A stretch of 64,000 nt of DNA, taken from Anaerolineales bacterium (lineage in GTDB: Bacteria; Chloroflexota; Anaerolineae; Anaerolineales; DRMV01). The translations under genes and the position numbers were made by a program. The notes beneath the pieces are model-generated. The model was not told the origin of the DNA, searched no databases, and worked only from the letters and a program-made list of their open reading frames with translations. Location: positions 22,185 through 86,184 of the forward strand of contig JALWJZ010000103.1 in NCBI GenBank assembly GCA_026996855.1. Reading direction: 5' to 3'. Shown piece after piece: positions 31,823 to 50,081 of the stretch. Every line of letters begins with the position of its first letter. The first letter of the stretch is position 1.

Positions 31823-31886
31823 CAGGCGGAGGGAGCGGGATTCGAACCCGCGGTGGGCGCGAGGCCCACAGGGGATTTCAAGTCCC
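31823..31886 (-). pseudogene. Displaced 3' fragment of tRNA-Ser(UGA); left attachment repeat of the element
   Basis: 64-bp repeat with one mismatch to 60653-60716; lacks the 5' 28 nt of the tRNA. Confidence 0.92.
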
Positions 31887-31908
31887 GAAGCCGCCAGGTG
31901 GCTCTATT

Positions 31909-32742
31909 TTACCGCAAAAGAAAGCGGTTGAAACGTCTGTGAAACTCTTGCAGTTCTTGCGTTGCAAAACGCCCGTAAAAGTGGACGGTGACGTAAATCG
32001 TACTGTGTCCCATCAACTGGCTGAGCATAGCCAGGTTTCCCCCGTTTTCCAGAATTCGCCGTGCGAAGGCATGGCGGAACGCGTGCGGATTCCATCGCTT
32101 CACTCCAGCCCGTCTCCCAATATCCCGGAGTACGTGATAAATCGTCCACTTGGAGAGTACGAAGACGCGCGGGTCATCCGTCTGGGGTCGCTCGCGAAGC
32201 CAATCCTCCAAGGCCTTCCGTGTGGCTTCTCCAAAGAAGACGAAACGCGAGCGCTCCCCCTTCTCGTAGACCAATGCTCTGCCTGCATCCAGATCCAGGT
32301 TGTCCAGGGTGAGGGTGGCCACACCGTTCAGTCGCGCCCCAGTATCGGCGAAAAAGAGCACCAGTGCGCGCTCACGGGCGTTTCGGCAAGCCCGGAGCAT
32401 TTTCAGGATGTCCTCATCGGAGATGGCCTTGGGGGGTTGGTTGGGCAACGTCGGGAAAGCGATTCGCTCCATAGGGTTGCGTTCTATCAAACCTTCACGG
32501 TAGGCCCAACGGAAGAAGCGCCTCCAGGTTCGCAAGTAACCGTGGAGTGTGCTGACGGCCAGGCCGCGCTTTTGAAGTTCCTGATACCGATTCTGCAAAT
32601 CAATGTGAGTAACCTCTGACAACTCCCGTTCGAACAAAGGTTGCAAACTGCTCTGGAGCCGTTTTTTGTACCACTTCCGGGTGGCTTCCGATTGGACGGT
32701 GAGGCTTTCGAAGAAAAGCCTGAGTGCCTCCTTGACGCGCAT
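31909..32742 (-). CDS. Tyrosine recombinase/integrase
   Basis: Catalytic pattern DTGARLNG...HAFRHAFARR...LMGHS...FYGRF; immediately next to att repeat. Confidence 0.92.
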   Translation of the reverse strand: MRVKEALRLFFESLTVQSEATRKWYKKRLQSSLQPLFERELSEVTHIDLQNRYQELQKRGLAVSTLHGYLRTWRRFFRWAYREGLIERNPMERIAFPTLPNQPPKAISDEDILKMLRACRNARERALVLFFADTGARLNGVATLTLDNLDLDAGRALVYEKGERSRFVFFGEATRKALEDWLRERPQTDDPRVFVLSKWTIYHVLRDIGRRAGVKRWNPHAFRHAFARRILENGGNLAMLSQLMGHSTIYVTVHFYGRFATQELQEFHRRFNRFLLR

Positions 32743-32806
32743 GACCCACCTCCAGCGCTAATTATGTGGAGATAGGGAGGCAAATAAGGTGTGCCCTAAA
32801 AAAGAA

Positions 32807-32832
32807 ACCCCGCGGCCGATAGCCGCGGGGTC
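32807..32832 (-). terminator. Intrinsic terminator downstream of relE-like toxin
   Basis: Minus strand: ACCCCGCGGC-TATCG-GCCGCGGGGTTTCTTTTTT. Confidence 0.75.
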
Positions 32833-32851
32833 GGACACACAAGAACAACGG

Positions 32852-33109
32852 TCAGCGGTACGCTTCGCGCCGGTGGACCACAGCGTGCACGTACACCCGC
32901 TTTTCGGCGTCGTTTATGTCGTAGAGAATGCGGTACGGGCCAACGCGCAGCCTGTAGGTGTTTTCCTGGCCGCGCAATTTTTTCACGCCGGGAGGGCGGG
33001 GGTCTTCTTGGAGGGCTTGGAGGATTTGTTTAATGCGAGATACATAGTGAGCGGGTACCCGGTCCAAGTCTTTGTAGACCGACCGGTGTACCTCAACCCG
33101 ATACTTCAC
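32852..33109 (-). CDS. RelE/ParE-family toxin
   Basis: YRVEVHRSVYKDLDRVP...GVKKLRGQENTYRLRVGPYRILYDIND. Confidence 0.9.
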   Translation of the reverse strand: MKYRVEVHRSVYKDLDRVPAHYVSRIKQILQALQEDPRPPGVKKLRGQENTYRLRVGPYRILYDINDAEKRVYVHAVVHRREAYR

Positions 33110-33296
33110 GGGCGCCCCCCATTTCTAAGCCCTCCAAGAATTCCTCCAAAGGCACGTAATTGGGGGCCTGTTTTCGAGCCTGGACCACCAACATGTCCAG
33201 GATGTCCTCCCATAGTTCAGGGTCCACCAAAACCCAGGTTTTTCCCTGGGCATCGCGCACCCATCGCGTTTGGGTTTCCAGGCGTTCTTCCAGCAT
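33093..33296 (-). CDS. Cognate antitoxin-like protein
   Basis: 67 aa, overlaps the toxin start; preceded by GGAGGA RBS and CAAGGGTCCCTTG palindrome near 33340. Confidence 0.7.
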   Translation of the reverse strand: MLEERLETQTRWVRDAQGKTWVLVDPELWEDILDMLVVQARKQAPNYVPLEEFLEGLEMGGAREVSG

Positions 33297-33414
33297 AACA
33301 CTTCCTCCTTTTGGCTTTGGGCTTCCATGGGAGCATTGTACCGCAAGGGACCCTTGAGATAAAGAAAACCCGCGGCGGGTGGCCGCGGGGGATTTTTGTG
33401 CGCAGGCGGGTGGC

Positions 33415-34290
33415 CTACGCGTTGGGAAAGACGGCCTTGTTGATGTCTGCATTGTGCATGGCGTGCAGGGCGCGCGCCTTGCGCTGGATGGCTCGACCAT
33501 AGCCGTCCTTGGGTTGGTAGTTCTCCGCCAACCATCGGATGTAGTCGGGGTCCTCTTGAGCAATTTGCTCAAGCGTTTTCCCCTTGTGCTTCCCGAAACC
33601 CATGGTGAACGGCTTCTTGTCATTCCGCTGGTCCTGAGTGGACGGGCGGGATTGCAGGGCTTCGGGATGGTGCTGGCGGAGAAAGTCACGGGCCACTTCG
33701 GCCCATTTGCCCGGCGCATAGGGCGAGGTGGCCAACCAGCGCACATACCCCGGTGCTTCAGCCCAGACCCGGGCCAGGGTCTTGCCCACGTGCTTGCCGA
33801 AGTCCAGCACACGGGAGCCGGGGTCTTCCTGGGGCTTTTGGGCTTCTGTGGTCTGCCGGGCTTGCGGCTGTGCGGGCTGGGGTTGCCCCCCATCCTGCCA
33901 TCCCAGGGCTGCGGTGAGTATCTCTGCCAGGTGGATGTGCTTGCACCGCACGGCCCGGTTGATGAAGTCCGGGCATCCGCAGGTGGCCTCGGGCTCCAGT
34001 TCCACCAGGTACGCTTTCCCGTCGCCGTTCTCGATGACGAAGGCCACGGGGCGCACCCGATAGCGGCCTTCGGCCAGGCCCTGCAGGGCCCGCTGACGCC
34101 GGACCTGGATGGGGTCGGCCTGTTGCTTTTGGGGCTTTTGGACTTGCGGCTTTTGCGTGGTCATGGCAGCACCTCCACTTTGGGATTTGGGCTTCAGGCT
34201 TTGAACGAAGGCGTTCCAGGCTTCACGGGCTTTGGGGTCCCAGGGGTCCTCGAACCCACTGGCGATGAGCCAGGCTTTCACCGCAGCCAT
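33415..34290 (-). CDS. SWIM-type zinc-finger protein with two ExoX-C-like GKHxGKT repeats
   Basis: CGCPDFINRAVRCKHIH; VLDFGKHVGKTLARVWAEAPGYVRWLATS and TMGFGKHKGKTLEQIAQEDPDYIRWLAEN; start could be 34162. Confidence 0.7.
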   Translation of the reverse strand: MAAVKAWLIASGFEDPWDPKAREAWNAFVQSLKPKSQSGGAAMTTQKPQVQKPQKQQADPIQVRRQRALQGLAEGRYRVRPVAFVIENGDGKAYLVELEPEATCGCPDFINRAVRCKHIHLAEILTAALGWQDGGQPQPAQPQARQTTEAQKPQEDPGSRVLDFGKHVGKTLARVWAEAPGYVRWLATSPYAPGKWAEVARDFLRQHHPEALQSRPSTQDQRNDKKPFTMGFGKHKGKTLEQIAQEDPDYIRWLAENYQPKDGYGRAIQRKARALHAMHNADINKAVFPNA

Positions 34291-34603
34291 GGCTTTCCTC
34301 CAGTTCCTGGGACCGCACCTCGGCCTCGAAGGCCAGGGTGTCCCAGAATTCCCTCTGGGCTTTGGGGTCGGTGGGCTTCAGGCGCTCGGCCAGGGCCAGC
34401 ACCAGGAAGGCCCGACGGTGGGCGGTGAAGGTGGCCACCTGCCGCAGCAGGTCCATGATGTCCCTGGTGCGGTTGATGACGAGATGGTGGATGAGCTCCG
34501 GGTGCTCCTCTTCCACCTTCACCAGGCCCTCGATGTCCTGCCAGAGGCCCTCCAGGCGGACCAGGAAACCCGGGGCTTCCCAGCGCTCGAACAGGGGCTT
34601 CAT
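34223..34603 (-). CDS. Hypothetical protein
   Basis: 126-aa ORF in operon order with RBS GGGAGG. Confidence 0.55.
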   Translation of the reverse strand: MKPLFERWEAPGFLVRLEGLWQDIEGLVKVEEEHPELIHHLVINRTRDIMDLLRQVATFTAHRRAFLVLALAERLKPTDPKAQREFWDTLAFEAEVRSQELEESHGCGESLAHRQWVRGPLGPQSP

Positions 34604-35091
34604 GGCTTTCCCTCCCGGTCAGAATTTGGGCTTTGGGGGATGGGCGTGGGCTTCCCCCATCCCATGAAACCGAACTCATCGTGGAAGTGGGCGACCAGGA
34701 TGTGCTTTCGGCTTTCACAGAAACGGCATAAGCGGCGCACCACGAGGGGGATCCGGGTGGCGCTTCCCTCCCGGACCTGGGCGCTCCACAGGGGCTTTTC
34801 GATGACCCACTGCTCCTGCCGCATCCCGTTGTCCACCAGGACCGTTGTTCCGGGTGCCAGGACCGCGATGTGGATGCGGTCGCGGACCCCGGCGGTCACG
34901 ACGTCCTGGTGGAACACCTGCTGGAAGCAGGTGGGGCACAGGGCATGGGTTCCCCAGGCGACCGGCACGGGCCGGATGGTGACCTCGGCATTGCAGAGGT
35001 CGCAGAGGACCTCGGCGATGACCGGGCCTTCTTCCAGCACCTCACCGGTGAGGGGGGCCAGCACCTTCCACGCGGTGCGCGGGCCCAGCAT
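34600..35091 (-). CDS. Hypothetical Cys-rich (zinc-ribbon-like) protein; start uncertain (35091 or 35217)
   Basis: CDLCNAEV...CPTCFQQ...LCRFCESRKH. Confidence 0.6.
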   Translation of the reverse strand: MLGPRTAWKVLAPLTGEVLEEGPVIAEVLCDLCNAEVTIRPVPVAWGTHALCPTCFQQVFHQDVVTAGVRDRIHIAVLAPGTTVLVDNGMRQEQWVIEKPLWSAQVREGSATRIPLVVRRLCRFCESRKHILVAHFHDEFGFMGWGKPTPIPQSPNSDREGKP

Positions 35092-35125
35092 CTTCCAGAC
35101 GACCTGGCTTTGGGCTTTTTGGTGC

Positions 35126-35175
35126 GGGGCGCACCGGGAAAAAGCCGCGTCCGCGGCATCTTCCCGGTGCGCCCC
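35126..35175 (-). other. 50-bp hairpin element 1 (tandem covarying pair)
   Basis: GGGGCGCACCGGGAAAAAGCCGCG/TC/CGCGGCATCTTCCCGGTGCGCCCC. Confidence 0.85.
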
Positions 35176-35183
35176 ATAGGGCA

Positions 35184-35233
35184 GGGGTGTCCTGGGAAAA
35201 AGCCGCGTTCGCGGCATCTTCCCAGGACACCCC
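35184..35233 (-). other. 50-bp hairpin element 2
   Basis: GGGGTGTCCTGGGAAAAAGCCGCG/TT/CGCGGCATCTTCCCAGGACACCCC. Confidence 0.85.
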
Positions 35234-35457
35234 TTTGTCCGCTTCCCGGAACCTGGAAGCGGACGGGCCGGCTATTCGGCTGTCAAGGTGCCGGGAAACG
35301 CAAAACGCCCCACGCCGAAGCGGTCAGGCTTCGACATGGGGCTTTCGTGCTTTCATAGAAAAAGCCCAAAGCCACATCGGGCTTTGGGCTTTGGAGGCTT
35401 TGCGGGGCTTTGCGGAGTGCGAGAGTGCTTGGGTTCAGGCTTTTCCGGTCGAAAAGG

Positions 35458-35486
35458 ATTATAGCGAAGTCATTTCAGGGTTTCAA
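35458..35486 (-). promoter_or_regulatory. Putative sigma70 promoter TTGAAA-N17-TATAAT
   Basis: Minus strand TTGAAACCCTGAAATGACTTCGCTATAAT; overlaps the 3' end of the OB-fold gene. Confidence 0.55.
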
Positions 35487-35799
35487 CCTTCTCGGCGATG
35501 ATGACGTTGGCCGCACGGGGGATGAGTACATGGCGCAGGTGCTCAGGCAGGGCGTCCTGGGGCAGCACCCGGCGCACCAGTTGGGCCAGGGGCTGTGTGA
35601 AGTCATAGGAGCCGAGTTTGCCTTCGACCCGGATGACCTGGCCTTTTTTCACCTCAGCGCCGTTAGGGAGCCAGACGGTGACGTAGTAGTCCTCGGTGTC
35701 GGTGCGGTGATTGAGGCGGGCCCAGGTGAGCCTGCGGCCCGCATGAGGGGCCTTCCACACTTTGACCACCTTGCCGGTGAACGTGACCTGGTTTTCCAT
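35470..35799 (-). CDS. OB-fold single-stranded-DNA-binding-like protein
   Basis: MENQVTFTGKVVKVWKAP...YYVTVWLPNGAEVKKGQVIRVEGKLGSYDF. Confidence 0.65.
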   Translation of the reverse strand: MENQVTFTGKVVKVWKAPHAGRRLTWARLNHRTDTEDYYVTVWLPNGAEVKKGQVIRVEGKLGSYDFTQPLAQLVRRVLPQDALPEHLRHVLIPRAANVIIAEKVETLK

Positions 35800-35946
35800 A
35801 CGGCACCTCCTTCAGGCTTTGGATGGCCCTGTCAGGTCCTGCCGGATTGTGTCGCACAAGGGGCCTTGTGCGTCGCAAGAGGGGCTTTCACGCCGCGAAA
35901 AGCCCCGTTTTTGGCCCGTAACGCCGGAAAAACGTGTCGTACAATG

Positions 35947-36492
35947 TCACTCCCCTTCCTCTGGCCCTCTGAGTACCACATGCGCCATCCACCCTTTCAC
36001 CCATTTTCCGTTGACCTTGGCCTCTACTTCAAACCAACGATAGCCCTGGTTTTCGACTTCCTTTCCTGTCCAATACACCACGGTACCGTTAGGCACCACA
36101 ATCACCACTTCGGCTTCTAAACTGGGTTCCTGGCGCAAATTCGCCCCATTCGCTGCTTGGGCCTGAACTGTGAAGGCTTTAAACGGCGTGGGGGTCGGTA
36201 CAGGCGTGGGAGACGGCGCGGGTGTTGGTTGCGGTTTAGGCGTGGGCGTGGGCATAGCGGCAAGGGCTTGCTGGACGCGACGTGGTACCAGGGTTTTGGT
36301 GGCGTAGAACACCCCTGCAACCGTCCCGCTGAAAAAAGCAAAAAGCCCGACTCCCATTAACACCAACGCCATCGTCCAGGATATTTGCGAAACGCGCTGT
36401 TTGAAACTTTCCAAACGGGCTTTCCATCCGGGCTGAACGGGTTGTTCAACAGACACGCTTTGCAGTTTTTCCCAATTGGTAGTCATGACCAC
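35947..36492 (-). CDS. Membrane-anchored bacterial SH3-domain protein
   Basis: One TM helix, Pro/Thr linker, then ANGANLRQEPSLEAEVVIVVPNGTVVYW...GWMAHVVL. Confidence 0.8.
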   Translation of the reverse strand: MVMTTNWEKLQSVSVEQPVQPGWKARLESFKQRVSQISWTMALVLMGVGLFAFFSGTVAGVFYATKTLVPRRVQQALAAMPTPTPKPQPTPAPSPTPVPTPTPFKAFTVQAQAANGANLRQEPSLEAEVVIVVPNGTVVYWTGKEVENQGYRWFEVEAKVNGKWVKGWMAHVVLRGPEEGE

Positions 36493-37661
36493 ACCTCCAA
36501 CCAGAAGTCTTCAGGCTTTTCCTGAGCCAAAGTGACCAAATCCGTTGCCCGACCGGGCAACCCCATGCGCCTGATGTCCGACACCAGAACGCGACGGCGC
36601 TCCGGGTTCGCGGCCACCAAAGCCACGAACCCGCCGTTGGCTTCGGCGTTGTGCCGCCACTTGGCCGGATTCTCTTTGTCGCTGATTTCCACTTCCACGA
36701 ACACACGGCGTTCGGCGTCCAGGGCCAGGTCGGGGGGCGTGGGACTGTCCACCTGGGGCAGCACTTCCACCTTGTAGCCCCGCAACCGGGCGTGCATGGC
36801 CGCGGCCAGCACACCGAGAGTGTGTTTTTCAAAGCGTTCGCCCTCATGGAGACGTATGAGCCGTTCCCAATCGCTTTCCACCGGTTCCCAACCCAACCGA
36901 CGGGCCAGGTCTTTTCCTTCGGATGTGAGCCGATACACGGCCAGACTGGAAGCCACATCTGGCCGCCCGTTCAGCGTGGCTTCCACAAGAAAGCCGCGCT
37001 GGGCCATGAAGGACCCGGCCTTGCGCACCCAGGACCGGGTTGTGTTGGGGGAACGGTGGAAGGCCTGGGCCAGGATGAGCACGTGCTCCATGCGGGTGTT
37101 CACACCGAACCGGGCGAGCAGAAAGACCATCATCAGCCCGCGTTTCCAGCGCACGCCGCCGGAGCGGGCGACCTCACGATACAGGCTGGGCACACGGATT
37201 CCCCCTTCCCAATCCACCTCTTGCAAAGCCCTGGCCCACTCTTGCAGAAGGTCCACACGATGCGGAAGCACAGGCGTTGCGTTGGATGTTGGCTCTGCGA
37301 CTGCGGGTGTTTCATGCTCAGATGTTTCATGCTCAGAGAGAGCAGCCTGCTTCGGCTTGTGCTCTGGTTCTGGCTCTGGACTGCCGTTCCAGGGGCGCGT
37401 GAGCACGTCCTCGAAAAAGCGTTCCCAATCCTGGGCCGTCCAATGTTCCAAAGCCCTGGGATTGGCCTTGCGCAGGGCTTCCAATCGCTCGCCCGCGCCC
37501 AGACGGTAGGCCAGGCGCACCATGAGGGACCGGAAGGCCTGCACTTCGGCCTCGGCCCGTTTTCGCCATTGCCGTTCCAGCGCGGCCAGGCTATCGCTCA
37601 GGCCTGCGGAATCGCGGTGTAGTTCATTTCTCCAATTCACGAACGGCTTGCTCCAGAGCAT
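36483..37661 (-). CDS. Replication-relaxation-like protein (wHTH plus PD-(D/E)xK-like region)
   Basis: wHTH-like LYREVARSGG...; PTPPDLALDAERRVFVEVEISDKENPAKWRHN. Confidence 0.55.
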   Translation of the reverse strand: MLWSKPFVNWRNELHRDSAGLSDSLAALERQWRKRAEAEVQAFRSLMVRLAYRLGAGERLEALRKANPRALEHWTAQDWERFFEDVLTRPWNGSPEPEPEHKPKQAALSEHETSEHETPAVAEPTSNATPVLPHRVDLLQEWARALQEVDWEGGIRVPSLYREVARSGGVRWKRGLMMVFLLARFGVNTRMEHVLILAQAFHRSPNTTRSWVRKAGSFMAQRGFLVEATLNGRPDVASSLAVYRLTSEGKDLARRLGWEPVESDWERLIRLHEGERFEKHTLGVLAAAMHARLRGYKVEVLPQVDSPTPPDLALDAERRVFVEVEISDKENPAKWRHNAEANGGFVALVAANPERRRVLVSDIRRMGLPGRATDLVTLAQEKPEDFWLEVWS

Positions 37662-38046
37662 GAATAGCCTGCTCCTTGGGTATCTGTCCCAGGCTCCAAT
37701 CTCTCACGGCTTTGGCGGCCTGCAAGACGGCCTGTCTCTCCGGTTCCAGGGCTTCCACGCGTTGCTCATTCACCAATCGAAGCGTTTCCTCGTACAGCCA
37801 TTGGCCGCGCACGGCGTCAGGGTTCCCGTCCAAAATCTCGGCCAGAGCCTCGGTTTGGCGGCGCAGCGCCGCCAGTTCGCGGTCATAGGCCCGTTCCTCC
37901 TTGAGGATTTGCCACTCCGTCCAGGTCAACAGTCGGTCTGGTGCCAGGGACTTCCCCAAAGCACCCAGGCCCACCATCACCGCCAGGACAATCAGAAAAG
38001 CGCCTATGAGCATAGGCATTCGTTTGACTTCTAATTCAATCTCCAT
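37624..38046 (-). CDS. Membrane/coiled-coil hypothetical protein
   Basis: N-terminal TM, then charged helices. Confidence 0.65.
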   Translation of the reverse strand: MEIELEVKRMPMLIGAFLIVLAVMVGLGALGKSLAPDRLLTWTEWQILKEERAYDRELAALRRQTEALAEILDGNPDAVRGQWLYEETLRLVNEQRVEALEPERQAVLQAAKAVRDWSLGQIPKEQAIHALEQAVRELEK

Positions 38047-38109
38047 GAGACCACCTCCTGGGGGCCGCCCCTGGCAGGCCGCCTAAGTGACGGCCCCAGG
38101 CGGCAGTGC

Positions 38110-38244
38110 TCAGGGCAAAAGGCGGGCGAGGGCGAGGAACCGAGCCAAAACCCACCGGTTCACAGCCTGGCCAACTTTGAGAATGAAGAGCAGTTTGAGA
38201 ACCAGCAGCCAGGCCATCATGCTGAGGGATGCAGAGCCGCGCAT
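38110..38244 (-). CDS. Small hydrophobic peptide (44 aa)
   Basis: GGGAGG RBS; MRGSASLSMMAWLLVLKLLFILKVGQAVNRWVLARFLALARLLP. Confidence 0.5.
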   Translation of the reverse strand: MRGSASLSMMAWLLVLKLLFILKVGQAVNRWVLARFLALARLLP

Positions 38245-38327
38245 GGGAAACCTCCCACAAGTGATTTCCCCATGCCGCGACGAAGTGCCGGGAGCATGGG
38301 TACCCAAATGCTCCCGGCACTTTTCCC

Positions 38328-38762
38328 TCAGCGCGTGCGGAACGTGCCCTCGGCATCCGCCCAACCCTCCAACGCGACCGTACGAGGAAGAAACCACAGA
38401 GACACTTGACCACGACTCACACAACGAATGCGACGCTCACCTACAGGATGGGCTGCAAAAGAAACCCCCTGCAAAACAGGGGCACCCTGGAGGGTGCGCA
38501 GGAACATGGCACGCCCCACCTGCAAGGCTCGCGGGGACCATTTCATGCGTTTCACGCCTGTTTGTTTGAAAGCATCCACACCGTCCTCAAAAGCCACTTG
38601 AACGGCTGCCTCGCATCCCGCGTCCGTGGCCACCTGCAATCGGGCGTCAGCGTAAAGCAAGCGGAGGCCGTCAATGACCAACGCCATCAACGGCATGAGG
38701 ACGAAGCCCAGGAGAAGGGCCGTCCATGCCAGCGACGAGGCTCGAACGGGGCGCATCACCAT
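38328..38762 (-). CDS. TadE/TadG-like pilus assembly protein
   Basis: TM then LVIDGLRLLYADARLQVATDAGCEAAVQVAF. Confidence 0.75.
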   Translation of the reverse strand: MVMRPVRASSLAWTALLLGFVLMPLMALVIDGLRLLYADARLQVATDAGCEAAVQVAFEDGVDAFKQTGVKRMKWSPRALQVGRAMFLRTLQGAPVLQGVSFAAHPVGERRIRCVSRGQVSLWFLPRTVALEGWADAEGTFRTR

Positions 38763-39157
38763 CCCTCCTTGCGGAAGGTGGCCCTGGCCTGGCCATGAAA
38801 ATCCGACATGTTCACGCCGAACCAAGAGGCCAGGCCCTTGAAGTAGTTGGGCACGGTGAAGTCTACGATGACCTGAACCTCACCGCCTCGTTCGGACGCC
38901 GCGACGACTCGAACGCGGTATTGCCCTACCGGGGCCACGGCGATGCGCTGCATGGCCGCCTGACGTGCGAGAGCGGCCGGATTCTCCTGCGCCACGGAAC
39001 CCATGCGGGCACCGTAGTTGGCCGCATTGGACGCCAGCAACCCCGCGTAGCCAAAAAGGGCCAGGTTGAAAAGCCCTATGGAGAGCAACAGAAGCAGCGG
39101 GTAGGTAAAAGCGGCTTCTTCCAATTCCCCGCGGCGTTTACGCCACCATCGCCACAT
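38756..39157 (-). CDS. TadE-like pseudopilin
   Basis: KRRGELEEAAFTYPLLLLLSIGLFNLALFGYAG. Confidence 0.85.
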   Translation of the reverse strand: MWRWWRKRRGELEEAAFTYPLLLLLSIGLFNLALFGYAGLLASNAANYGARMGSVAQENPAALARQAAMQRIAVAPVGQYRVRVVAASERGGEVQVIVDFTVPNYFKGLASWFGVNMSDFHGQARATFRKEGW

Positions 39158-39172
39158 CCCAATCTCACCTCC

Positions 39173-39352
39173 CTACAAACGGCTGGCCAGAGATTGGAAG
39201 GTCTGACTGACACGGCTCCCCAGCGCATACACACCAACTACGGCCACCAAGACGAAGAAAGCAATGAGTAACGCCTTTTCATCCAGTTCCCCGCGACGCT
39301 CTTCCAGCCAAAGGCGCATTTTGATAACCTTCAACATCAGACACTCGACCAT
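39173..39352 (-). CDS. Flp-family type IVb pilin-like protein
   Basis: ERRGELDEKALLIAFFVLVAVVGVYALGSRV. Confidence 0.75.
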   Translation of the reverse strand: MVECLMLKVIKMRLWLEERRGELDEKALLIAFFVLVAVVGVYALGSRVSQTFQSLASRL

Positions 39353-39382
39353 ATCATTACCTCCTTCAGGCGGATTTAAAGC

Positions 39383-39453
39383 AAAAAGGCGTACTACCCC
39401 TCCGGTAGTACGCCAGTCATTTCGCATTATAGAGCCATGGACGCAATGGTCAA
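39383..39453 (-). promoter_or_regulatory. Promoter (TTGACC-N16-TATAAT) followed by leader hairpin and T-tract
   Basis: Minus strand: TTGACCATTGCGTCCATGGCTCTATAATGCGAAATGACTGGCGTACTACCGGAGGGGTAGTACGCCTTTTT. Confidence 0.75.
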
Positions 39454-39816
39454 GACCAAAGCGCCTAAAAAGAAACCCGGAAGAGCGGGAAACGGCGACC
39501 GAAACCCCTGGCCAGCCCACCACAGCATAGCACCCAACCATGCACCAATGGGCAAAACGGGATTAACCAGACTCATAGCGCTCAGGGTCAGCACATCCGC
39601 CGAACCCATCCAAGAACGAAGAAGAAGGCCCAAACCAAACCACACCACAGCCCATATCCAGGCTTCCAGTCCTCCCATAGAGAGACGAAGGGTTATGGCC
39701 CAAAACAACATCCCGGCAAGCGTCCATGCATTCACCTGCCGCGAACGCAGGTCCTGCCAGGCGGCCAGGCCCAACAAGACCAGAAACCCTACCATACCCC
39801 AGGCAGAAGCCGCCAT
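39427..39816 (-). CDS. Prepilin peptidase, A24/TadV-like
   Basis: AAWQDLRSRQVN and MGSADVLTLSAM (GxGD-like site); 129 aa. Confidence 0.8.
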   Translation of the reverse strand: MAASAWGMVGFLVLLGLAAWQDLRSRQVNAWTLAGMLFWAITLRLSMGGLEAWIWAVVWFGLGLLLRSWMGSADVLTLSAMSLVNPVLPIGAWLGAMLWWAGQGFRSPFPALPGFFLGALVLTIASMAL

Positions 39817-40379
39817 CGTACCCTCCGGGCGTACTCGGTGTAACCGTCCAAAATCCCCTCTTCCCACTGAATACGCAGCAACACCGTTACGGTGAGCACC
39901 GCGGCCAGAGCCAGATTGCGCAGGGAGGGGTTCAGAAGCACAACCGGTATCAAACTCAGGGTTTCCCCAGCATACATAGGGTGTCGAATGAACCGATAAG
40001 GGCCGTGTGTGACCAAACCCCGGTCCGCAGGTGCAACACCAAAAGCCGCACCCAGGGAAACCATCCCCCACAAAGCCAGGCCCACACCCACCAGGCCCAA
40101 TGCTTCAGCCCACCATGTCGTATGACCCGCTTCCAATCCCTGGGGGAGAACAGCGTCTATCCATGCGATGACCTTCTGATACCAGGGAGCGTCTCTCCGG
40201 GCCGCCCGCCGATGCCAAAGGCGGAAGGCAGCCAATCCGCCGTGCAAAGCCACGGCCAAGGACAACCAATTTCCCATATCTACAAACCGGCGCAGATTGA
40301 TGCCGGCCAGCAGAACCAGGAAAGCAGTACCTATCAGGGTGAGGCAAACATGGAGAACACGGGAGCACCCAGTACCCAT
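39789..40379 (-). CDS. Isoprenylcysteine carboxyl methyltransferase/PEMT-like membrane methyltransferase
   Basis: GPYRFIRHPMYAGETLSLIPVVLL...EEGILDGYTEYARRVRWRLLPGVW. Confidence 0.85.
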   Translation of the reverse strand: MGTGCSRVLHVCLTLIGTAFLVLLAGINLRRFVDMGNWLSLAVALHGGLAAFRLWHRRAARRDAPWYQKVIAWIDAVLPQGLEAGHTTWWAEALGLVGVGLALWGMVSLGAAFGVAPADRGLVTHGPYRFIRHPMYAGETLSLIPVVLLNPSLRNLALAAVLTVTVLLRIQWEEGILDGYTEYARRVRWRLLPGVW

Positions 40380-41194
40380 AGAAGGAACCCCACGAAAGGC
40401 ATGAAGTAAAAGATAGCCGCGGCCAACACCAACTGGCTGTCCAGTTTCTTGGCCCGTGCCATAACGTCTGTGCGATATTCACGAGCCATAGCGCGGGCAA
40501 TTTCCGACATGAGAAAAGCCCCCTGGGTACCCTTCCGGGCCACCATGTCCAATTGGACGGCCAGCATCAAAATTTCCGGCACACCGCGGGAAAACTTGCG
40601 GGCATAATCCAGGAACATGCCCACCGCAGGGGGACGGGAAAACAGCGGACGTCCGGTTTTCCGAGCCTGCTCGACGGCCTCAGCAATGAAACGGTGAAGC
40701 GGGCCTGAGAGTTGCGCGGCGCGTTCCAAAGCCAGGTCCGGTGATGCGCCCGCGGCCAGTTCCGCAGCCATGACAGTTGCCAATTCAGGAAGTTGACGTT
40801 TAGCCAATCGCTTCGCGCGGGAGGCCCGGTTTCGTACTTTGAGGATGGGGTAATACGTGAGAAGCAGGGGCAGAAACCAGGCCAACCCTTTTGGAATGCC
40901 AACAACCAGGAAAAGGGCCAGATACCCAAATGCCGTCATGACCGCGGCTTCCCCAAGGACGCGGTACGCCGTCACGTTTTTCAAGTACCCGGCTCGCTGC
41001 GCCCAGGTCAAATCCTCTCGGATACGCTTGAGGGAAAACGGGAAACGCTTGGCCAACCAAGCCCCAAATTGCTCCAAGGTACCCCCTTCTCTTCCGCGGT
41101 ATTCAGCCAAAATCGCGGTCGGACGGCGAGATAGTCCCAAATCCAAGGCCCAATATACGGCCAGGCCCAAAGCAAACGCTGCGAAGAAAGTCAT
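40334..41194 (-). CDS. tadC: Tad pilus platform protein TadC-like
   Basis: T2SSF-like; LPELATVMAAELAAGASPDLALERAAQ. Confidence 0.88.
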   Translation of the reverse strand: MTFFAAFALGLAVYWALDLGLSRRPTAILAEYRGREGGTLEQFGAWLAKRFPFSLKRIREDLTWAQRAGYLKNVTAYRVLGEAAVMTAFGYLALFLVVGIPKGLAWFLPLLLTYYPILKVRNRASRAKRLAKRQLPELATVMAAELAAGASPDLALERAAQLSGPLHRFIAEAVEQARKTGRPLFSRPPAVGMFLDYARKFSRGVPEILMLAVQLDMVARKGTQGAFLMSEIARAMAREYRTDVMARAKKLDSQLVLAAAIFYFMPFVGFLLWVLGAPVFSMFASP

Positions 41195-42111
41195 AGGCTC
41201 ACCTCCCGAATGAGGCCCTGGATATAGAAATAGCCCACCACCCCCCAGACCACGAGAAGCACCAAAAGTACCTGATTGAACGGCTGGTAAAACAGGGCTT
41301 TGGTCTGGGGGTTGGACATGATGACAACAAGACCGGTACCCAAGGCCAACAAAATCACTCGGATAGTACCCCATGCACCGGCCGCCGCGGCCATGGCCTC
41401 GGCGCGGGCGTCCAGGATGTGGGTGAGGTTCTCGGCCACCATGTTGAAAGCCTCTACATAACCCACGCCGCCGGTTTCCCACACGCGCTTCAATTCCCGA
41501 AGGAACAGCACCAGAGTTGGCGAAAGCATTTCGGCTTCCTGGATGGCTTGTTGAAAAGCGCGGCCGGGTTCCCGGTGAAGCCGATGGACGAAGGTCTGCA
41601 TCCACTTCCTCAGCGGGCTGTTCTGCTCCATGCTTTCGAGCACTTCATCCAGGGCTTGCAAAAGATTGGGGGTGATGGGAAGGGTGGCAGCCAGGCGGGT
41701 CAGCACCAAAGGGAGTTCCTTTTCCATGCGCTGACGAAAGTCCTTCCACTTGGTCTCTACCCAGGTGCGCACCAGGAAATAAGATGCTACAGGGGATGCA
41801 AGGACAAAGACAGGTGGTAGAAACACCGCGGCCAGACTGCCCACCACGACGGTGGAAGCCAGAACACCAAACCAAAAGGCCCTGTTTTCCCAACCTTTGA
41901 CGTCCAGGCCCAGGGATTGGAAAGCCAGGCGAATGGGCAACGCCCGGTCAACAATCAACGTTTTTTGGTCGTCACGGCTTCGCATGTATTGCCGCAAGGT
42001 AGTCTGCACCCGGTGGCTATTCCAAAGGGATAGTCCCAAATCCAAAGCCCAGTAAACAGCCAGGCCCAAAGCAAACGCCACTATGATGGGTATAACCAAA
42101 TCCATCATCAT
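41191..42111 (-). CDS. tadB: Tad pilus platform protein TadB-like
   Basis: T2SSF-like; ELPLVLTRLAATLPITPNLLQALDEVLE. Confidence 0.88.
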   Translation of the reverse strand: MMMDLVIPIIVAFALGLAVYWALDLGLSLWNSHRVQTTLRQYMRSRDDQKTLIVDRALPIRLAFQSLGLDVKGWENRAFWFGVLASTVVVGSLAAVFLPPVFVLASPVASYFLVRTWVETKWKDFRQRMEKELPLVLTRLAATLPITPNLLQALDEVLESMEQNSPLRKWMQTFVHRLHREPGRAFQQAIQEAEMLSPTLVLFLRELKRVWETGGVGYVEAFNMVAENLTHILDARAEAMAAAAGAWGTIRVILLALGTGLVVIMSNPQTKALFYQPFNQVLLVLLVVWGVVGYFYIQGLIREVSL

Positions 42112-43334
42112 CGCCGCTCCCTGGTGAGGGGTTCCATGGAAGTGTCGCCGTAACGGTACACCTGGCGGAACTTCACATCTCCGCCTTTGAAACCTGCAAC
42201 TTCGTGAACGGCCAGCACCCGCCGTTTGCCGTCCGCCCAACCCACGGTGACCACCACATCTATGGCCTGCTCGAAGATGGCTTTGGCGGCCTCCATACGC
42301 ACCTGGGCGTCGGCGAACATGATGACGGCCAGACGAAACACCGCGTGCTGGGGACTTTCCGCGTGGAACGTAGACAGACCGGGGTGGTCGGACATCTGGG
42401 CGCGGAACAGGGCCAGGGCTGCATCGCCCGTGCGCACCTCACCCACGATGAGCCATTGCGGTGCCATGCGCATAGCATCGTCCACGCCGTCCTTCAGGGT
42501 GTACGGCGGTACCTGGCTTCCGGGCATGGAAGACCGGGCTTCGAGCGTGACCACATTGGGATGCCGGAGCCAGATTTCTTCAGGGTCCTCAATCTTCACC
42601 ACGCGTGCATCGGCCGGGATGCCCCCGTTGGCCAGGGCACTGAGGAAAGTGGTCTTGCCCGTGGCCGTGCCACCAATGACCAAAACCCGCAGTTTTCGCC
42701 CGACCGCGGCGCATAAAGCGTCCATGACAAAATCCGGGGCCATTTCCCAGGCAATGATGTCCTGGGGCAGGATGGGTCGGGCTTCAAACAAACGAATGTT
42801 AATGGCGGGGTACCCTTCCCCTGGGGCCAACACAGGATGCACGATTTTTACACGTGCGCCCCCCGTTCCATGGAACCGAGGCAAACGAGCGTTTACTGAA
42901 GGATTGGCTTCGTTCAAAGCCCGCCCCGTAGGGGCCAACAGGGCTTCCACAGCGCGCCAGGCTTCTTCTACTGTGGGGCGATAATCCCACGGCTCGAAAT
43001 GCTCAGCCCCTTTTCGCAACAACCACACCGAGCCATCAGGGTTCAAAGCAATCTCGGTCAGGTCGTTTCGAGAAGGAGGCAATAGCGCACCAAGAAAACC
43101 CATCCCGCCCACTTGAGCGGCTGCTCGGCGCGCCATATCTTCCACCAACACCGGCCCCGCGGTTAGACCCTTTTCTGCAAGGAGGCGGTGCACTTCTTGG
43201 CGGGCCTCTTTCAAGAGGGCTTCTGTATCCCGAACCACGGCAAGGGGTAGCCGTCCTAACCGTTCCACAGCTTCCCGAACGATGTTGTCCTGGTGCTCTG
43301 TGGTTAGCGTTTGGGCAAATTGCGTCCAGGTCAT
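42108..43334 (-). CDS. tadA: Tad secretion ATPase (CpaF/TadA)
   Basis: VIGGTATGKTTFLSALA; PQWLIVGEVRTGDAALALFRAQMSDHPGLSTFHAES. Confidence 0.94.
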   Translation of the reverse strand: MTWTQFAQTLTTEHQDNIVREAVERLGRLPLAVVRDTEALLKEARQEVHRLLAEKGLTAGPVLVEDMARRAAAQVGGMGFLGALLPPSRNDLTEIALNPDGSVWLLRKGAEHFEPWDYRPTVEEAWRAVEALLAPTGRALNEANPSVNARLPRFHGTGGARVKIVHPVLAPGEGYPAINIRLFEARPILPQDIIAWEMAPDFVMDALCAAVGRKLRVLVIGGTATGKTTFLSALANGGIPADARVVKIEDPEEIWLRHPNVVTLEARSSMPGSQVPPYTLKDGVDDAMRMAPQWLIVGEVRTGDAALALFRAQMSDHPGLSTFHAESPQHAVFRLAVIMFADAQVRMEAAKAIFEQAIDVVVTVGWADGKRRVLAVHEVAGFKGGDVKFRQVYRYGDTSMEPLTRERR

Positions 43335-43353
43335 GACTCCCTCGCTTCCGGTC

Positions 43354-44616
43354 TCACGTTCGCACCTTTACCCGCACCGGTCCCATCCGATACTCCTGGG
43401 CTGCGTTGGATGCGGCTGCGACCGCGGGCATGGGCGGAACCAATGCATTGACAAGTCCCTGAATAGCCTTTCGAAACTCCCCCACACCCAGTGGGGACTG
43501 ACGTCGGTCCTGGGCCACGGCCACCGCGGACAGGAAAGGAATGGTCGCGGCCAAAGGCGGGAAAGTGGCCCCCGACACGTCCCGCAGCATCTCTGTTGCG
43601 GCCCGGTGCCATTCTTTGGGCGCGATGCGTCCGCCCACCATGTTCAGGGCCACCAAGATGTGATTCGCGGGCAGGCGGTGCTCGCCGGACACGCGTTCGG
43701 TGACCGTGCGGTAGGCTTCCACAGTGCTCAGGATGTCGGCCAGAGAAGGTCTGGCTACCAACACCAAATGAGTGGCCGCAGTGATGGCTTGGGCCGCGAT
43801 ATTCGCGTTAGGGGTGTCCAGGACGAGCAGGGCATACCCTGCCCTGGCCGCGGTGCTCACCAACGCAGACAGCGAAGCCGGGTTTTCGGTAGGCAATGCG
43901 GAAAAGCGGGCCTCGGTGAGTACATCCGGGAACCCCCCTAACACGGCCAGGCCGTTCAGCATTTGCAAACTTTCCTGCAACCCTTCTACCGAGGGATTGG
44001 CCATCCAGGATGTGATATTGGGTTCAGGCTTCAAGCCCAGAACCAGGGGGTTGGTGTCCGGGGTATCCAGGCCCACCAACATGGTGGGCACGCCGCGAGT
44101 TGCGGCTTCCAGGGCCACTGCCGCGGCCAATGTGCTTTTCCCCGTACCGCCTGCATGATTCCAGAACATCACCACGCGAAAACCCACCACCAACGCGGGG
44201 CCAGATGGGGCCGCTTGCGGCGAAACCTCTGCCCCACCCCATCCCCCTGTGGTTGTCATGACTGCGGCGGCCACAATGCGGTCGGGAAGTTTGTGCAGGT
44301 CTTCGAAATCCCCTATATGCACCTCCCGCACCCTGGGCATCTGGGCAAAGGCCTGACGCATCTCCGCGGCCTGGGGCGGCAGGACCAGAAAGACCTCCGC
44401 CTGTACGGCCTGCAGGAACCGCTGCAGGGGGTCCGGCCCACCGAAGAGGGTGGCATCCAGGACCAAGGCCTGGGGGTTGTAGGCCATCTTGGATTGCAGG
44501 TCTTCGACGCTCAGGGCCACCGAGACCACATGGAGCCGGTCGTCGTCGCTGAGCACCGGCCCCCATACGTTGAGGCGAGGCATGGGAGCGGCAATCAAAA
44601 CCGTGACCTTGGTCAT
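43354..44616 (-). CDS. TadZ/CpaE-like MinD/ParA-type ATPase
   Basis: FWNHAGGTGKSTLAAAVALEAA; N-terminal receiver-like domain. Confidence 0.85.
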   Translation of the reverse strand: MTKVTVLIAAPMPRLNVWGPVLSDDDRLHVVSVALSVEDLQSKMAYNPQALVLDATLFGGPDPLQRFLQAVQAEVFLVLPPQAAEMRQAFAQMPRVREVHIGDFEDLHKLPDRIVAAAVMTTTGGWGGAEVSPQAAPSGPALVVGFRVVMFWNHAGGTGKSTLAAAVALEAATRGVPTMLVGLDTPDTNPLVLGLKPEPNITSWMANPSVEGLQESLQMLNGLAVLGGFPDVLTEARFSALPTENPASLSALVSTAARAGYALLVLDTPNANIAAQAITAATHLVLVARPSLADILSTVEAYRTVTERVSGEHRLPANHILVALNMVGGRIAPKEWHRAATEMLRDVSGATFPPLAATIPFLSAVAVAQDRRQSPLGVGEFRKAIQGLVNALVPPMPAVAAASNAAQEYRMGPVRVKVRT

Positions 44617-45461
44617 TTGCTTTCCTCCGCTTGCTCGGATGGTTGCGGAAACACCACCATAGCGGGCACGAAGAAGCCCGAAGTCCGAATGCTGACCTCA
44701 GCATTCGGGGGAACCAAAAAGAGGCTCAAGCGCGCGCCATCCGACATTTGCAAAGCAGCCAGCAATTCCACGGGGTTCACAGGCATGGTGACGTTTTCCG
44801 CTCCGAACGTTTGAAACTCGTACACCACATTCACCGGCTCTGCAGGTACGGCCACCACCACTGCCCCCTCTTTAGATTTCATGGAGCCAATACTCCCCAA
44901 AAGGGGGTCCTCACTGCCCGTTTCTTGCAAAGCCTGGAACTCCGGCGATACGTATAGCACCCGCAACCCTTCAATGACCACCTTAGCGTAATCCCCTGAG
45001 ACCAGGGGCGTTTGCGCTTCCCCTGCTTCTTCCACAGGGAAACGGGCCAGGATGGCCTGGACAAAAGTCTGGTCGTCAATAAGAGCGACCACGCCCACCT
45101 TGTCACCGGGCTTGAGCACACCCGCGACGCCGGAGGCATCGTCCACCTGGATGGCCATCGCACGCTCGTCGGGATTGAGGTCGAACTGCCATGGTCCCAG
45201 ATGGGCCTGACGAATCACATCCCCCGCGCTCCGTGGTACGGCCAGGGTCTGGCCCAAGACGCTCTCGATGGATGTCAATGCGTCTTCAGGGGCCAGGTTT
45301 TCGGGCATGGCTTGCAGGGTCACGTCTCCTTCCGAGATGACCTGACCGGGGGCCAGGTCGCGAGCGGCGACCACAACTTGAACGGTTTGAGTCTGTGAAA
45401 GCAAGTACACCACCGCGGCCACCAACAGAGCGATGCCAATGCGCAGCGCTTTACTCAACAT
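44613..45461 (-). CDS. cpaB: Flp pilus assembly protein CpaB/RcpC (SAF domain)
   Basis: VVVAARDLAPGQVISEGDVTLQAMPENLAPEDALTSIESVLGQTLAVPRSAGDVI. Confidence 0.92.
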   Translation of the reverse strand: MLSKALRIGIALLVAAVVYLLSQTQTVQVVVAARDLAPGQVISEGDVTLQAMPENLAPEDALTSIESVLGQTLAVPRSAGDVIRQAHLGPWQFDLNPDERAMAIQVDDASGVAGVLKPGDKVGVVALIDDQTFVQAILARFPVEEAGEAQTPLVSGDYAKVVIEGLRVLYVSPEFQALQETGSEDPLLGSIGSMKSKEGAVVVAVPAEPVNVVYEFQTFGAENVTMPVNPVELLAALQMSDGARLSLFLVPPNAEVSIRTSGFFVPAMVVFPQPSEQAEESK

Positions 45462-45639
45462 GGCTTTTCTCCTTCTTCACGGTCTGTTTGGCAATCAACA
45501 AAAGCGTCAAGGCTTCTTCCAGGGATTTCCAATCCACGTCCAGCACATGCTGGTTTTGGTCCACCACCACAACCAGGGCCCGGTTGCCTTGCAGTAAACG
45601 CTTCACGGTCTCTTCCAGAACTCGTTTCACATCGTTCAT
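45451..45639 (-). CDS. Small hypothetical protein in tad operon
   Basis: 62 aa; overlaps neighbours by a few nt. Confidence 0.6.
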   Translation of the reverse strand: MNDVKRVLEETVKRLLQGNRALVVVVDQNQHVLDVDWKSLEEALTLLLIAKQTVKKEKSHVE

Positions 45640-45905
45640 GGCGCCACCTCGTTTGCACTGGTTGCCGTCATCGTGGGGCCGGGTGTCACGGTTGGCGTGT
45701 ACACCCAATGTGGAGGCGGAGTGACCCCCTGCCACCATCCCGAAAGGGTGGGTGTGGGTGTGGCCGTGGAGGGCACGGTCACCATCCATGCCGTAGGCGT
45801 TGGGGTTCTCCCGCCATTTCCACTCCAGGACAGACCTCCCAGGGCCATAAGCATGGCCAGCAGAAAAACCAACAGCACCAGGAACCCCATGACGCTTTGC
45901 TTCAT
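45636..45905 (-). CDS. Small membrane-anchored Pro/Thr-rich protein
   Basis: MKQSVMGFLVLLVFLLAMLMALGG then Pro/Thr-rich tail; ATGA overlaps on both sides. Confidence 0.65.
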   Translation of the reverse strand: MKQSVMGFLVLLVFLLAMLMALGGLSWSGNGGRTPTPTAWMVTVPSTATPTPTLSGWWQGVTPPPHWVYTPTVTPGPTMTATSANEVAP

Positions 45906-48900: not shown

Positions 48901-49453
48901 AAAGGATTTCGTTCTGTTCCGCGGCCAGGTCATCGGGTGTGGGATTGGGTAGAGAACCGTCTTCTCCGTACAACCCCCGCCGGGTCTCCCGCGGATCCGG
49001 GAAACCCAGCAGCACCAGGGGACGGCGTGCGGACATGATGAACCGAAGATACCACTCCAGGTACTCCGTCTCCGGAGGCACCGTTCGAGACTGGGGGTAG
49101 TTTGCCAGGGTCGCCAACACCGCGGCCAGCTGTTCCCGGGCTCGAGCGATGGCTTCATCCTTCGTGTCCGCGGTGGCCGCGGCGCCGTAGAACTGCACGA
49201 TGCCCACGTAACGAGGCCGAAACATGCCCATGGCGCTGTATACGAAGTTCACCCCCGCGTTGTACATGCCCCGGATGGCGGCCCACTGCTTTCCCAGAAG
49301 GTCGTAGTCTTCCTTGGCGGCGATGGGGATGGCGTGAAGCCGATGCAGGGCTACTGCCCTGTACAACGTTCGTCCTTCGGGAGTGGCGATGTGGAACCAC
49401 AGCGCGCCCACTTCACCGCCGTTGTCATGTACACCTGAAGCCAGAATACACAT
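45902..49453 (-). CDS. VirB4/TraC/HerA-like ATPase with ~330-aa Ser/Thr/Gly/His-rich insert
   Basis: Walker A FAGDTGWGKSVSA; Walker B-like LLQIFFEEANKIFG; low-complexity insert about aa 251-582. Confidence 0.88.
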   Translation of the reverse strand: MCILASGVHDNGGEVGALWFHIATPEGRTLYRAVALHRLHAIPIAAKEDYDLLGKQWAAIRGMYNAGVNFVYSAMGMFRPRYVGIVQFYGAAATADTKDEAIARAREQLAAVLATLANYPQSRTVPPETEYLEWYLRFIMSARRPLVLLGFPDPRETRRGLYGEDGSLPNPTPDDLAAEQNEILFRGLAKLRKNFVFQTVAEALPRRYLSKTLVEVAQLASIVASRQRGALSIGFSLGVPIMAALGRTLSHSGMAGRAESVAHTDGVSRQWGQAHTEGYAHTEGVAHTTGGSVTVTHSSADTTGVAHGRAHTVSHSVGTFESTTHSTSVSHTEGTSGSVGHSAGGSSSWSIGGAHTTGTAKTHTSGTTQGITVGQSLTVGQSFTQSASVGGSAGYHAGGNVSLGVPGTLGAGVNGGWNANVSGEVGWSGTQSASRSASLSGSISTMQSDANTTSTSDTVSASVGGASTWGVTTTSGTFSSTTVTHGTAHTTGRSETWGTADTTSVTHSHAHTKGKSVSVSRFWSTTRSQSDTWSQADTKSEGWGLSHAESKGVSNAAGHAGGYGWVSGLSAGLVPGVSIGRSWQTEDDVAMRLTEILRGLEGILNQASAEGGFMTEALIWVDDEEAAAAVESLVPQAFHGPNVPTPVLTVHPEPQDVEPLRYHALAFLPWHGPAENDPFGGKLWTKYTTLLTAGQVAAYTAPALIEEGSTVTVMAPIPEGMGFYPDMPGDVVLGHQVSPTTHELTTAPVRLDQRRLFHTLFAGDTGWGKSVSAIRMAYETTLKWRTRTVVLDFGAGWRALLNAPGLEGHVDIRQLWPDAPRPLRWNPLQIGRNIDPETQWRAFADIFGSIARLGVRRQKQELLDALRQVYLRAGVLVDDPEIRTDPKWGRVQPDEADLVGVSAGTPLSDLTWEQKQAIAVHRSSKVGLADLYRQVQEKLTTVPPRDTMLQGVLEGILYRLNPLVQGAASRMFEPGPDVVPVEEMARPWGILIVEGGSFLDDFGKAFLLGWLGWHLYMDMMTRRVRHLAGPDEPLLQIFFEEANKIFGAASFEEAEEGISAAQRFGDMFRDARKYGVRLHVITQAPSLIPQDIISSCNNLCIAFLKNPRDKDIVLAALGFSEKGFRDEEWRRFLTDMPIGLQIGRFPYTFDRAYQRPVLFKPLMLDVPEPDDTEIAARLGRIRI

Positions 49454-49472
49454 TACTGTTTCCTCCTCTTTT

Positions 49473-49535
49473 GGCCAATAGGCCTTAACACCCCTTAAGC
49501 CCGGCCTATAGGCCCTGCAGGAAGGCCTATAGGCC
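49473..49535. repeat. Three GGCC(T/A)ATAGGCC palindromes upstream of the ATPase gene
   Basis: 49473-49484 GGCCAATAGGCC; 49503-49514 and 49524-49535 GGCCTATAGGCC. Confidence 0.85.
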
Positions 49536-50081
49536 CTTTCCGCGCGTGCGCACCTGGGCGATGAGGTCCTCCGGTGTTTGCGGCAACGGTGGATGGGCAA
49601 ACAGGGCCTGGGCCAGCATAGCGAAGAAACCCACGGGGTATGCGTACAGAGCAATGGCGGCCAGGGCTTCCAGGTACGATGCCCCGCCAGCGAGCCAATC
49701 CTGTCCGGTGCGAGCCAGGACCGAGCGGTAGAGCATCACACCCAGGGCAATAAGTACGTACAGGGCCAGGCCCTGGGTGATGCGCCAGTACAGGGCCTGG
49801 GGGTTGAACCGTTCCAAACGCCAGGCCAGCCATCCCCCCAGGGCCATGGCCCCCATCATCAGGCCCACCACCGTAGGAGCAAACACGGCTGTAATCAACA
49901 TGACGGCCAATACCCCGGCCATCCAGCGTCGCCGAAGCGTGTCCTGCTGTTGTAGCAACAAAGGTGCGGCCGCGGCCAGGAGCAACCACAGCCGCCAGGC
50001 CTCCAGCACCGCATACACCACAGCCAAAAAACCGTTGAGCACCCAAAGGCCGGGAAGCCACCAGGGATTTGGCATGGTCAT
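49527..50081 (-). CDS. Polytopic membrane protein, hypothetical
   Basis: ~5-6 TM helices; ATGA overlap with upstream gene. Confidence 0.7.
   Translation of the reverse strand: MTMPNPWWLPGLWVLNGFLAVVYAVLEAWRLWLLLAAAAPLLLQQQDTLRRRWMAGVLAVMLITAVFAPTVVGLMMGAMALGGWLAWRLERFNPQALYWRITQGLALYVLIALGVMLYRSVLARTGQDWLAGGASYLEALAAIALYAYPVGFFAMLAQALFAHPPLPQTPEDLIAQVRTRGKGL

What the first reader, a model, noticed from the sequence alone, without database searches (positions are those of the whole stretch)
35126..35233. Tandem 50-bp hairpins with compensatory changes and an identical core
Seen: two hairpins 8 bp apart share the core GGGAAAAAGCCGCG-TY-CGCGGCATCTTCCC. Four outer-stem positions differ (GGGGCGCACC vs GGGGTGTCCT), each matched by a change in the opposite arm. 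Read as minus-strand RNA, the core AAA/ATC region becomes G-U, A-U and a single U-U, favouring an RNA function on that strand.
Basis: seen in the sequence. Interest (0 to 1): 0.78.

Follow-up and report, generated by a model that had tools for sequence, protein, structure and literature searches.

The report
boxA-led tandem RNA hairpins, integrative element
Two near-perfect 50-base hairpins sit in the leader of a gene inside a 29-kb integrated element of a Chloroflexota-type bacterium, just after a copy of the boxA signal its ribosomal RNA genes use against premature transcription stops; related elements carry the signal before gene after gene, almost always with a large hairpin.

Summary
Two 50-nt hairpins (35126-35175, 35184-35233) share a 30-nt core. 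They differ at four outer-stem positions, all compensated, plus one loop base. Both keep the same two DNA mismatches, which on the minus strand become one G-U and one U-U. Genome-wide there are only these two copies.

The new context: they lie in a 28.8-kb integrative element in a tRNA-Ser gene, whose annotated genes are all on the minus strand. Sixteen nt before the hairpin cluster, on that strand, is the only boxA-like site of the 64-kb window (GCACCTTGACAG). GCACCTTGACAA stands before 16S rRNA genes in this family, including this genome's own. Six related elements carry it 20 times, in 17 cases followed by a long hairpin just before a start codon; where a consensus ribosome-binding site could be placed (15 leaders) it is buried in that hairpin.

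Best reading: a minus-strand leader RNA, boxA plus hairpins, working like a phage nut/N-leader. boxA would load NusB-S10 on RNA polymerase; the hairpins, each with a minus-only GC-stem plus U5, would be a conditional terminator pair or an RNase III/translation-control spacer. The RNA reading is well supported; the hairpins' exact job is inferred. No Rfam match.

The parts
35184..35233 (-). Hairpin H2: 50 nt, 24 stem positions, core GGGAAGATGCCGCG-AA-CGCGGCTTTTTCCC (minus strand), upstream copy
35126..35175 (-). Hairpin H1: 50 nt, same core (loop GA), outer stem differing by four compensated pairs
35280..35291 (-). boxA-like site GCACCTTGACAG, the only site with <=1 mismatch to GCACCTTGACAA in the window; 0.2 expected in 64 kb, 1e-4 within 60 nt upstream on the right strand
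   Evidence: same 12-mer before 16S genes
35237..35264 (-). Small hairpin H3 between boxA and H2 (GTCCGCTTCCAGG/CCGGGAAGCGGAC)
35202..35215 (-). Terminator-like core inside H2: GCCGCGAACGCGGC followed by TTTTT, minus strand only
35144..35157 (-). Terminator-like core inside H1: GCCGCGGACGCGGC followed by TTTTT, minus strand only
35307..35342 (-). Terminator-like hairpin T2 just upstream of boxA, followed by GTTTTGCGTTT
35361..35392 (-). Terminator hairpin T1 (13 bp) followed by TTTTT; its 3' arm can also pair with 35100-35120 downstream (19 of 21)
35458..35486 (-). Promoter-like sequence TTGAAA-17-TATAAT (11 of 12)
34600..35091 (-). Gene downstream of the hairpins: 163-aa Cys-rich (CxxC) protein; likely start ATG 35091 (GC3 profile; distant homologue in G029 starts at a similar point)
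31823..60716 (-). 28.8-kb integrative element bounded by a 64-bp att repeat (98%): 3' part of tRNA-Ser at 31823-31886 and intact tRNA-Ser(tga) side at 60653-60716
36483..37661 (-). Conserved element protein used to find relatives (no Pfam/NCBIfam name)
35840..35945 (-). Second conserved intergenic element (106 nt, 81% mean column identity in 7 elements), no Rfam match

Best explanation
The two hairpins are part of a structured minus-strand 5' leader RNA (boxA - H3 - H2 - H1 - gene at 34600-35091) in an integrative element. The boxA copies the host's own rRNA boxA, so the nascent RNA would bind host NusB-S10 and modify RNA polymerase. Downstream, each hairpin presents a GC stem plus U5 on this strand only, so a plain polymerase may stop there, while a boxA-modified one would read on into the CxxC / SWIM-ExoX-like / ParE / integrase genes. 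The fully zipped 24-position duplexes may then serve as RNase III sites and as a rigid spacer between boxA and the start codon, as in the lambda N leader. The outer stems have diverged while staying paired, which lets two tandem copies fold separately instead of cross-pairing. Shown: structure, strand asymmetry, boxA identity by rRNA position, mobile element, recurrence of boxA plus hairpin leaders in relatives. Inferred: transcription itself, NusB binding, conditional termination, RNase III.
For: A boxA-like site lies 16 nt upstream of H3 on the same strand and is the only one in the window. GCACCTTGACAA precedes 16S rRNA in four genomes of the family including this one, about 110 nt before the conserved 16S 5' sequence and about 30-60 nt after a TTGACA/TATAAT-type promoter; in this genome a second copy, GCACGTTGACAA, lies in the spacer before 23S. 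It is not a -35 box: no -10 follows at 15-19 nt in 21 sites (mean best match 1.57 of 6, background 2.2). NusB is encoded in the genome. In six related elements 20 copies lie in gene orientation; 17 define leaders running to a start codon. In all 15 leaders with a recognised GGAGG-type site, 6-7 of its 7 bases are paired in the MFE; median z of 17 leaders is -5.3. In the close pairs of leaders paired columns vary 5 of 360, unpaired 40 of 217, and all five keep pairing through G-U changes, which only RNA allows. Minus strand: lower energy and U5 after the inner stem on this strand only.
Against: No expression data. Only one element carries these particular hairpins; relatives have different hairpins after boxA, so the pair itself cannot be tested by covariation beyond two copies. 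The boxA differs from the rRNA copy at its last base. The nested terminators are weak (5-bp stem, -8.4 kcal/mol, five U then CCC). T1 and T2 lie upstream of boxA, so boxA could not suppress them. boxA alone is known mainly against Rho, not intrinsic terminators (abstract of PMC6614801; own knowledge). The base of each hairpin is not followed by a U tract.
Confidence: 0.45

Rival explanations
1. Lambda-N-leader-like processing and translation control: the hairpins are RNase III substrates and a spacer that brings boxA-bound Nus factors near the start codon, repressing translation until cleavage; termination plays no part.
For: 24-position near-perfect duplexes between boxA and the start. In relatives the hairpin after boxA buries the ribosome-binding site in all 15 leaders scored. 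boxA near an SD represses translation of E. coli suhB, and lambda nutL represses N (PMC5725501, read). GGAAGATG occurs in both hairpins and at the gene start.
Against: No clear SD before ATG 35091. RNase III sites cannot be recognised from sequence here. The shared minus-only U5 is not needed for it.
Confidence: 0.22
2. Plain tandem intrinsic terminators ending the upstream minus-strand transcript; the boxA is incidental.
For: GC stem plus TTTTT in both copies on the minus strand only. T1 and T2 upstream are also terminator-like, so this is a terminator-rich gap.
Against: A coding-looking gene starts 34 nt after H1 with no promoter-like site reported between. The U tract is inside the stem, not after it. 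A chance boxA at this place has p about 1e-4.
Confidence: 0.18
3. A DNA-level palindrome: protein site, replication or transfer origin, cassette-type recombination site, or a mobile palindrome; symmetry kept by template switching.
For: In a mobile element. Compensated changes also arise in DNA palindromes. In relatives one boxA-hairpin unit carries no gene (L020:12567), and near-identical leaders precede different genes (L020:13931 and L023:1463), which is cassette-like.
Against: Both copies keep the same two DNA mismatches although the four other pair changes were kept compensated. Only two copies in the genome. In relatives, change is concentrated in RNA-unpaired columns and tolerated pairs are G-U. 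boxA position and strand follow the genes.
Confidence: 0.12

Closest known systems
rRNA operon boxA (NusB-S10 antitermination)
   Same: Near-identical 12-mer (11 of 12) to the one before 16S rRNA in this same genome; same strand as the genes; structured RNA around it.
   Different: In front of an integrative element's gene, followed by two 24-position hairpins.
Lambda nut sites and the N leader
   Same: Mobile-element leader with boxA then hairpin(s) then start codon.
   Different: No boxB-like 15-nt hairpin and no N protein identified; hairpins are long.
HK022 put RNA
   Same: Two stem-loops close together in the leader of a mobile genome (put is about 70 nt, two stem-loops; PMC9378689).
   Different: put acts without boxA or protein factors; stems here are longer and more regular; no sequence comparison made.
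Tn916 canT and pLS20 conAn antitermination
   Same: Integrative or conjugative element with long operons and internal terminators; canT is a 452-nt multi-hairpin RNA (PMC11658703).
   Different: No boxA role is described in the passages read; different hosts; sequence similarity was not tested.
E. coli suhB boxA leader
   Same: boxA near a start site controls a non-rRNA gene (PMC5725501).
   Different: No long hairpins described in the passages read; boxA is only 6 nt from the SD there.
Bidirectional or tandem intrinsic terminators
   Same: GC stem plus U5.
   Different: U5 on one strand only, and the U tract is inside the longer stem.

Membership tests
Nus-factor boxA site | Sequence matches the organism's own rRNA boxA | tested here: met
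   11 of 12 identical to the 12-mer in its own 16S leader
Nus-factor boxA site | On the transcribed strand, downstream of a promoter | tested here: inconclusive
   Same strand as genes; 11-of-12 promoter-like site 166 nt upstream; not verified by RNA data
Nus-factor boxA site | Binds NusB-S10 | not testable with these tools
   NusB gene present; binding needs experiment
Lambda-type nut site | boxB hairpin bound by an element-encoded N-like protein | tested here: inconclusive
   H3/H2/H1 lie where boxB would be but are much longer; no N-like protein noticed among the ORFs scanned against Pfam, though such small proteins could be missed
HK022 put | Two stem-loops that alone make polymerase terminator-resistant | not testable with these tools
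   Two stem-loops present; activity needs experiment
Known Rfam RNA family | Covariance-model score above gathering threshold | tested here: not met
   Only hits far below gathering score, mostly to short-hairpin models such as eukaryotic miRNAs
Intrinsic terminator | GC-rich stem directly followed by a U tract | tested here: met
   Both copies, minus strand only, weak 5-bp stem
REP / MITE / mobile palindrome | Many dispersed copies | tested here: not met
   Two tandem copies only; none in viral contigs, plasmids or phages
Sigma-70 -35 box (alternative reading of TTGACA in the motif) | -10 hexamer 15-19 nt downstream | tested here: not met
   21 sites, mean best 1.57 of 6 against 2.2 background
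Integron attC-type cassette site | Inverted R''/R' boxes (RYYYAAC...GTTRRRY) flanking each gene | not tested
   Considered only by eye; orientation and G-U evidence favour RNA

The most novel reading that the evidence does not exclude
A family of Chloroflexota-type integrative elements has taken over the host's rRNA boxA as a repeated operon signal: nearly every gene downstream of a conserved element protein has its own boxA-led leader with a hairpin that buries the ribosome-binding site, so Nus factors couple antitermination to translation control gene by gene. The window's tandem hairpins are a variant in which two terminator-bearing hairpins take that place. The arms of some relatives' hairpins can refold as two small hairpins with complementary loops, freeing the ribosome-binding site, which would make it a switch.
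Probability: 0.3. Interest if true: 0.78.

Novelty: new variant of a known kind. Interest (0 to 1): 0.55.

Why it matters
boxA control outside rRNA and lambdoid phages is known from few cases. Here, in a phylum without studied examples as far as I know, the same 12-mer serves rRNA and an integrative-element family, up to seven times within one element, almost always with a large structured RNA. That makes it directly testable whether Nus factors are used gene by gene, and whether a hairpin can be a terminator, a processing site and a translation gate at once. Rfam has none of these leaders.

Tried and rejected
Genome search with the whole 451-bp region: besides the window itself only chance coding-region hits (L004, L007) with no hairpins. 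Other copies of the core in the order: background only. Viral contigs: none. Plasmids and phages, DNA and element protein: none. RNAalifold on all 17 leaders: only boxA-SD pairs, nearly all invariant, so uninformative. TTGACA as a -35 box: rejected. REP/MITE: rejected, two tandem copies only. Homologues of the 34600 gene: only two weak partial ones; the one examined, in G029, showed no obvious boxA leader by eye. The A5 covariance model was built but not searched with.

Full report
Observation. The two hairpins are real and described correctly. H1 is 35126-35175 and H2 35184-35233. Of nine differences, eight form four compensated pairs and one is in the loop. Both copies keep the same two DNA mismatches; on the minus strand these read G-U and U-U. 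The RNA fold is far beyond chance on both strands and better on the minus strand. In the window scan they are the two highest-scoring hairpins, and the core occurs nowhere else in the 2.56-Mb genome.

Where they are. The minus strand from 55.7 kb down to 31.9 kb carries, in one direction, ParA, an integrase, a replisome-organiser-like gene, Tad/Flp pilus genes, a conserved unnamed protein (36483-37661), an SH3 protein, a small protein with only weak fold hints (35470-35799), the CxxC gene, a SWIM/ExoX-like gene, a ParE toxin and a XerC-like integrase. A 64-bp repeat, 98% identical, joins tRNA-Ser(tga) at 60653-60716 to a tRNA fragment at 31823-31886 beside the integrase. So the finding lies in a 28.8-kb integrative element. 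Homologous elements are in genomes named Anaerolineales or Chloroflexota in GenBank.

boxA. Homologues of 36483-37661 led to six further element regions: L020, L021, L022, L023, L024 and L083. Downstream of it, in gene direction, GCACCTTGACAA or a one-base variant recurs: seven times in L020, two in L021, two in L022, two in L023, four in L024, three in L083 (one L022 site lies upstream rather than downstream of that gene, and one further one-mismatch hit in L024 lies in a coding region on the other strand and was left out). In the window it occurs once, at 35291-35280 minus, 16 nt upstream of H3. Chance expectation of that place and strand is about 1e-4. Outside the elements, the same 12-mer stands before 16S rRNA genes in four genomes of the family, including this one; this genome's 16S-23S spacer has GCACGTTGACAA. 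This identifies it as the host's boxA by position. The gamma-proteobacterial consensus is GYTCTTTAANA (PMC5725501); ours agrees at 8 of 11 positions. It is not a promoter -35: no -10 follows it.

Leaders in relatives. Seventeen leaders run from boxA to a start codon in 127-163 nt. For the 15 in which a GGAGG-type site was recognised, 6-7 of its 7 bases are paired in the MFE; the median z of all 17 is -5.3. Among close pairs (groups g2, g3, g4, g6), 5 of 360 paired columns vary against 40 of 217 unpaired ones, and all five variable pairs stay paired through one-sided, G-U type changes. That is RNA-level constraint. RNAalifold of a hairpin subset instead finds two small local hairpins, with 7 of 13 pairs showing kept two-sided changes, on an alignment that was not structure-aware; their loops are complementary in, for example, L020:14477. 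A bistable fold is therefore possible but not shown. In G007 a further hairpin with core YGGCTACCCGCC and varying stems lies upstream of several boxA sites, the same design of fixed core and changing stem as in the finding.

What the window's hairpins add. They lie where relatives have the ribosome-site hairpin, but differ: two tandem hairpins, with GCCGC-loop-GCGGC followed by U5 only on the minus strand. As transcription passes U5, the fold has only the inner stem plus a short extension; afterwards the U tract is drawn into the stem. A weak terminator that zips into a long duplex is a fair reading. The kept asymmetry (GAAGAU opposite UUUUU) is not expected of a DNA palindrome but is what a minus-strand U tract would need.

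Mechanism. Best: boxA-led leader with conditional terminators, possibly also RNase III sites and translation control. Shown: sequence, structure, strand, boxA identity by position, element, recurrence. Inferred: transcription, NusB-S10 loading, termination, processing. NusB is encoded.

Known relatives. rRNA boxA complexes (PMC10250234), lambda nut/N leader, suhB (PMC5725501), HK022 put (PMC9378689), Tn916 canT and pLS20 conAn (PMC11658703), LoaP (PMC12691694). The lambda N leader with an RNase III hairpin between NutL and N rests on my own knowledge and on a reference title seen. None matches in all features; Rfam has no match.

Limits. One element, two copies, no expression data, weak nested terminators, and T1/T2 lie before boxA. 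The six further elements come from four genomes; L084 duplicates L024 and was not counted.

Noticed in passing
window:35840-35945 (-); L020:11525-11630; L021:1865-1970 (-); L022:10328-10435; L023:1467-1574 (-); L024:4200-4307 (-); L083:11030-11137: A 106-nt intergenic element, 81% mean column identity in seven elements, with three copies of TTGTGCGACA/TGTCGCACAA; the middle one can pair with either neighbour. It lies just before boxA in four of seven. No Rfam match. Could be RNA switch or oriT/iteron.
   Followed up: partly
L020:11272, 12527, 12607, 13487; L021:1471: Repeated hairpins with fixed core TGGCTACCCGCCG (U-G pair kept) and varying paired outer stems, mostly upstream of boxA in G007 elements; five exact copies in that genome, none in G000 or G005.
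   Followed up: partly
L020:12567-12643: A boxA followed by a 59-nt hairpin and no gene, then the next boxA.
   Followed up: no
window:35078-35096, 35146-35164, 35204-35222: GGAAGATGC occurs in both hairpins and at the likely gene start; GGGAAGATGC also follows the boxA before 23S rRNA in this genome.
   Followed up: no
window:35359-35379 and 35100-35120: 19 of 21 complementary arms could close the whole leader into one domain; the upstream arm alternatively forms terminator T1.
   Followed up: no
window:31823-31886 and 60653-60716: 64-bp att repeat in tRNA-Ser(tga), bounding a 28.8-kb element with Tad pilus genes, ParA and two tyrosine recombinases.
   Followed up: yes
L020:13931-14082 and L023:1315-1463 (-): Nearly identical leaders in front of different genes, suggesting shuffling of leader and gene.
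   Followed up: no
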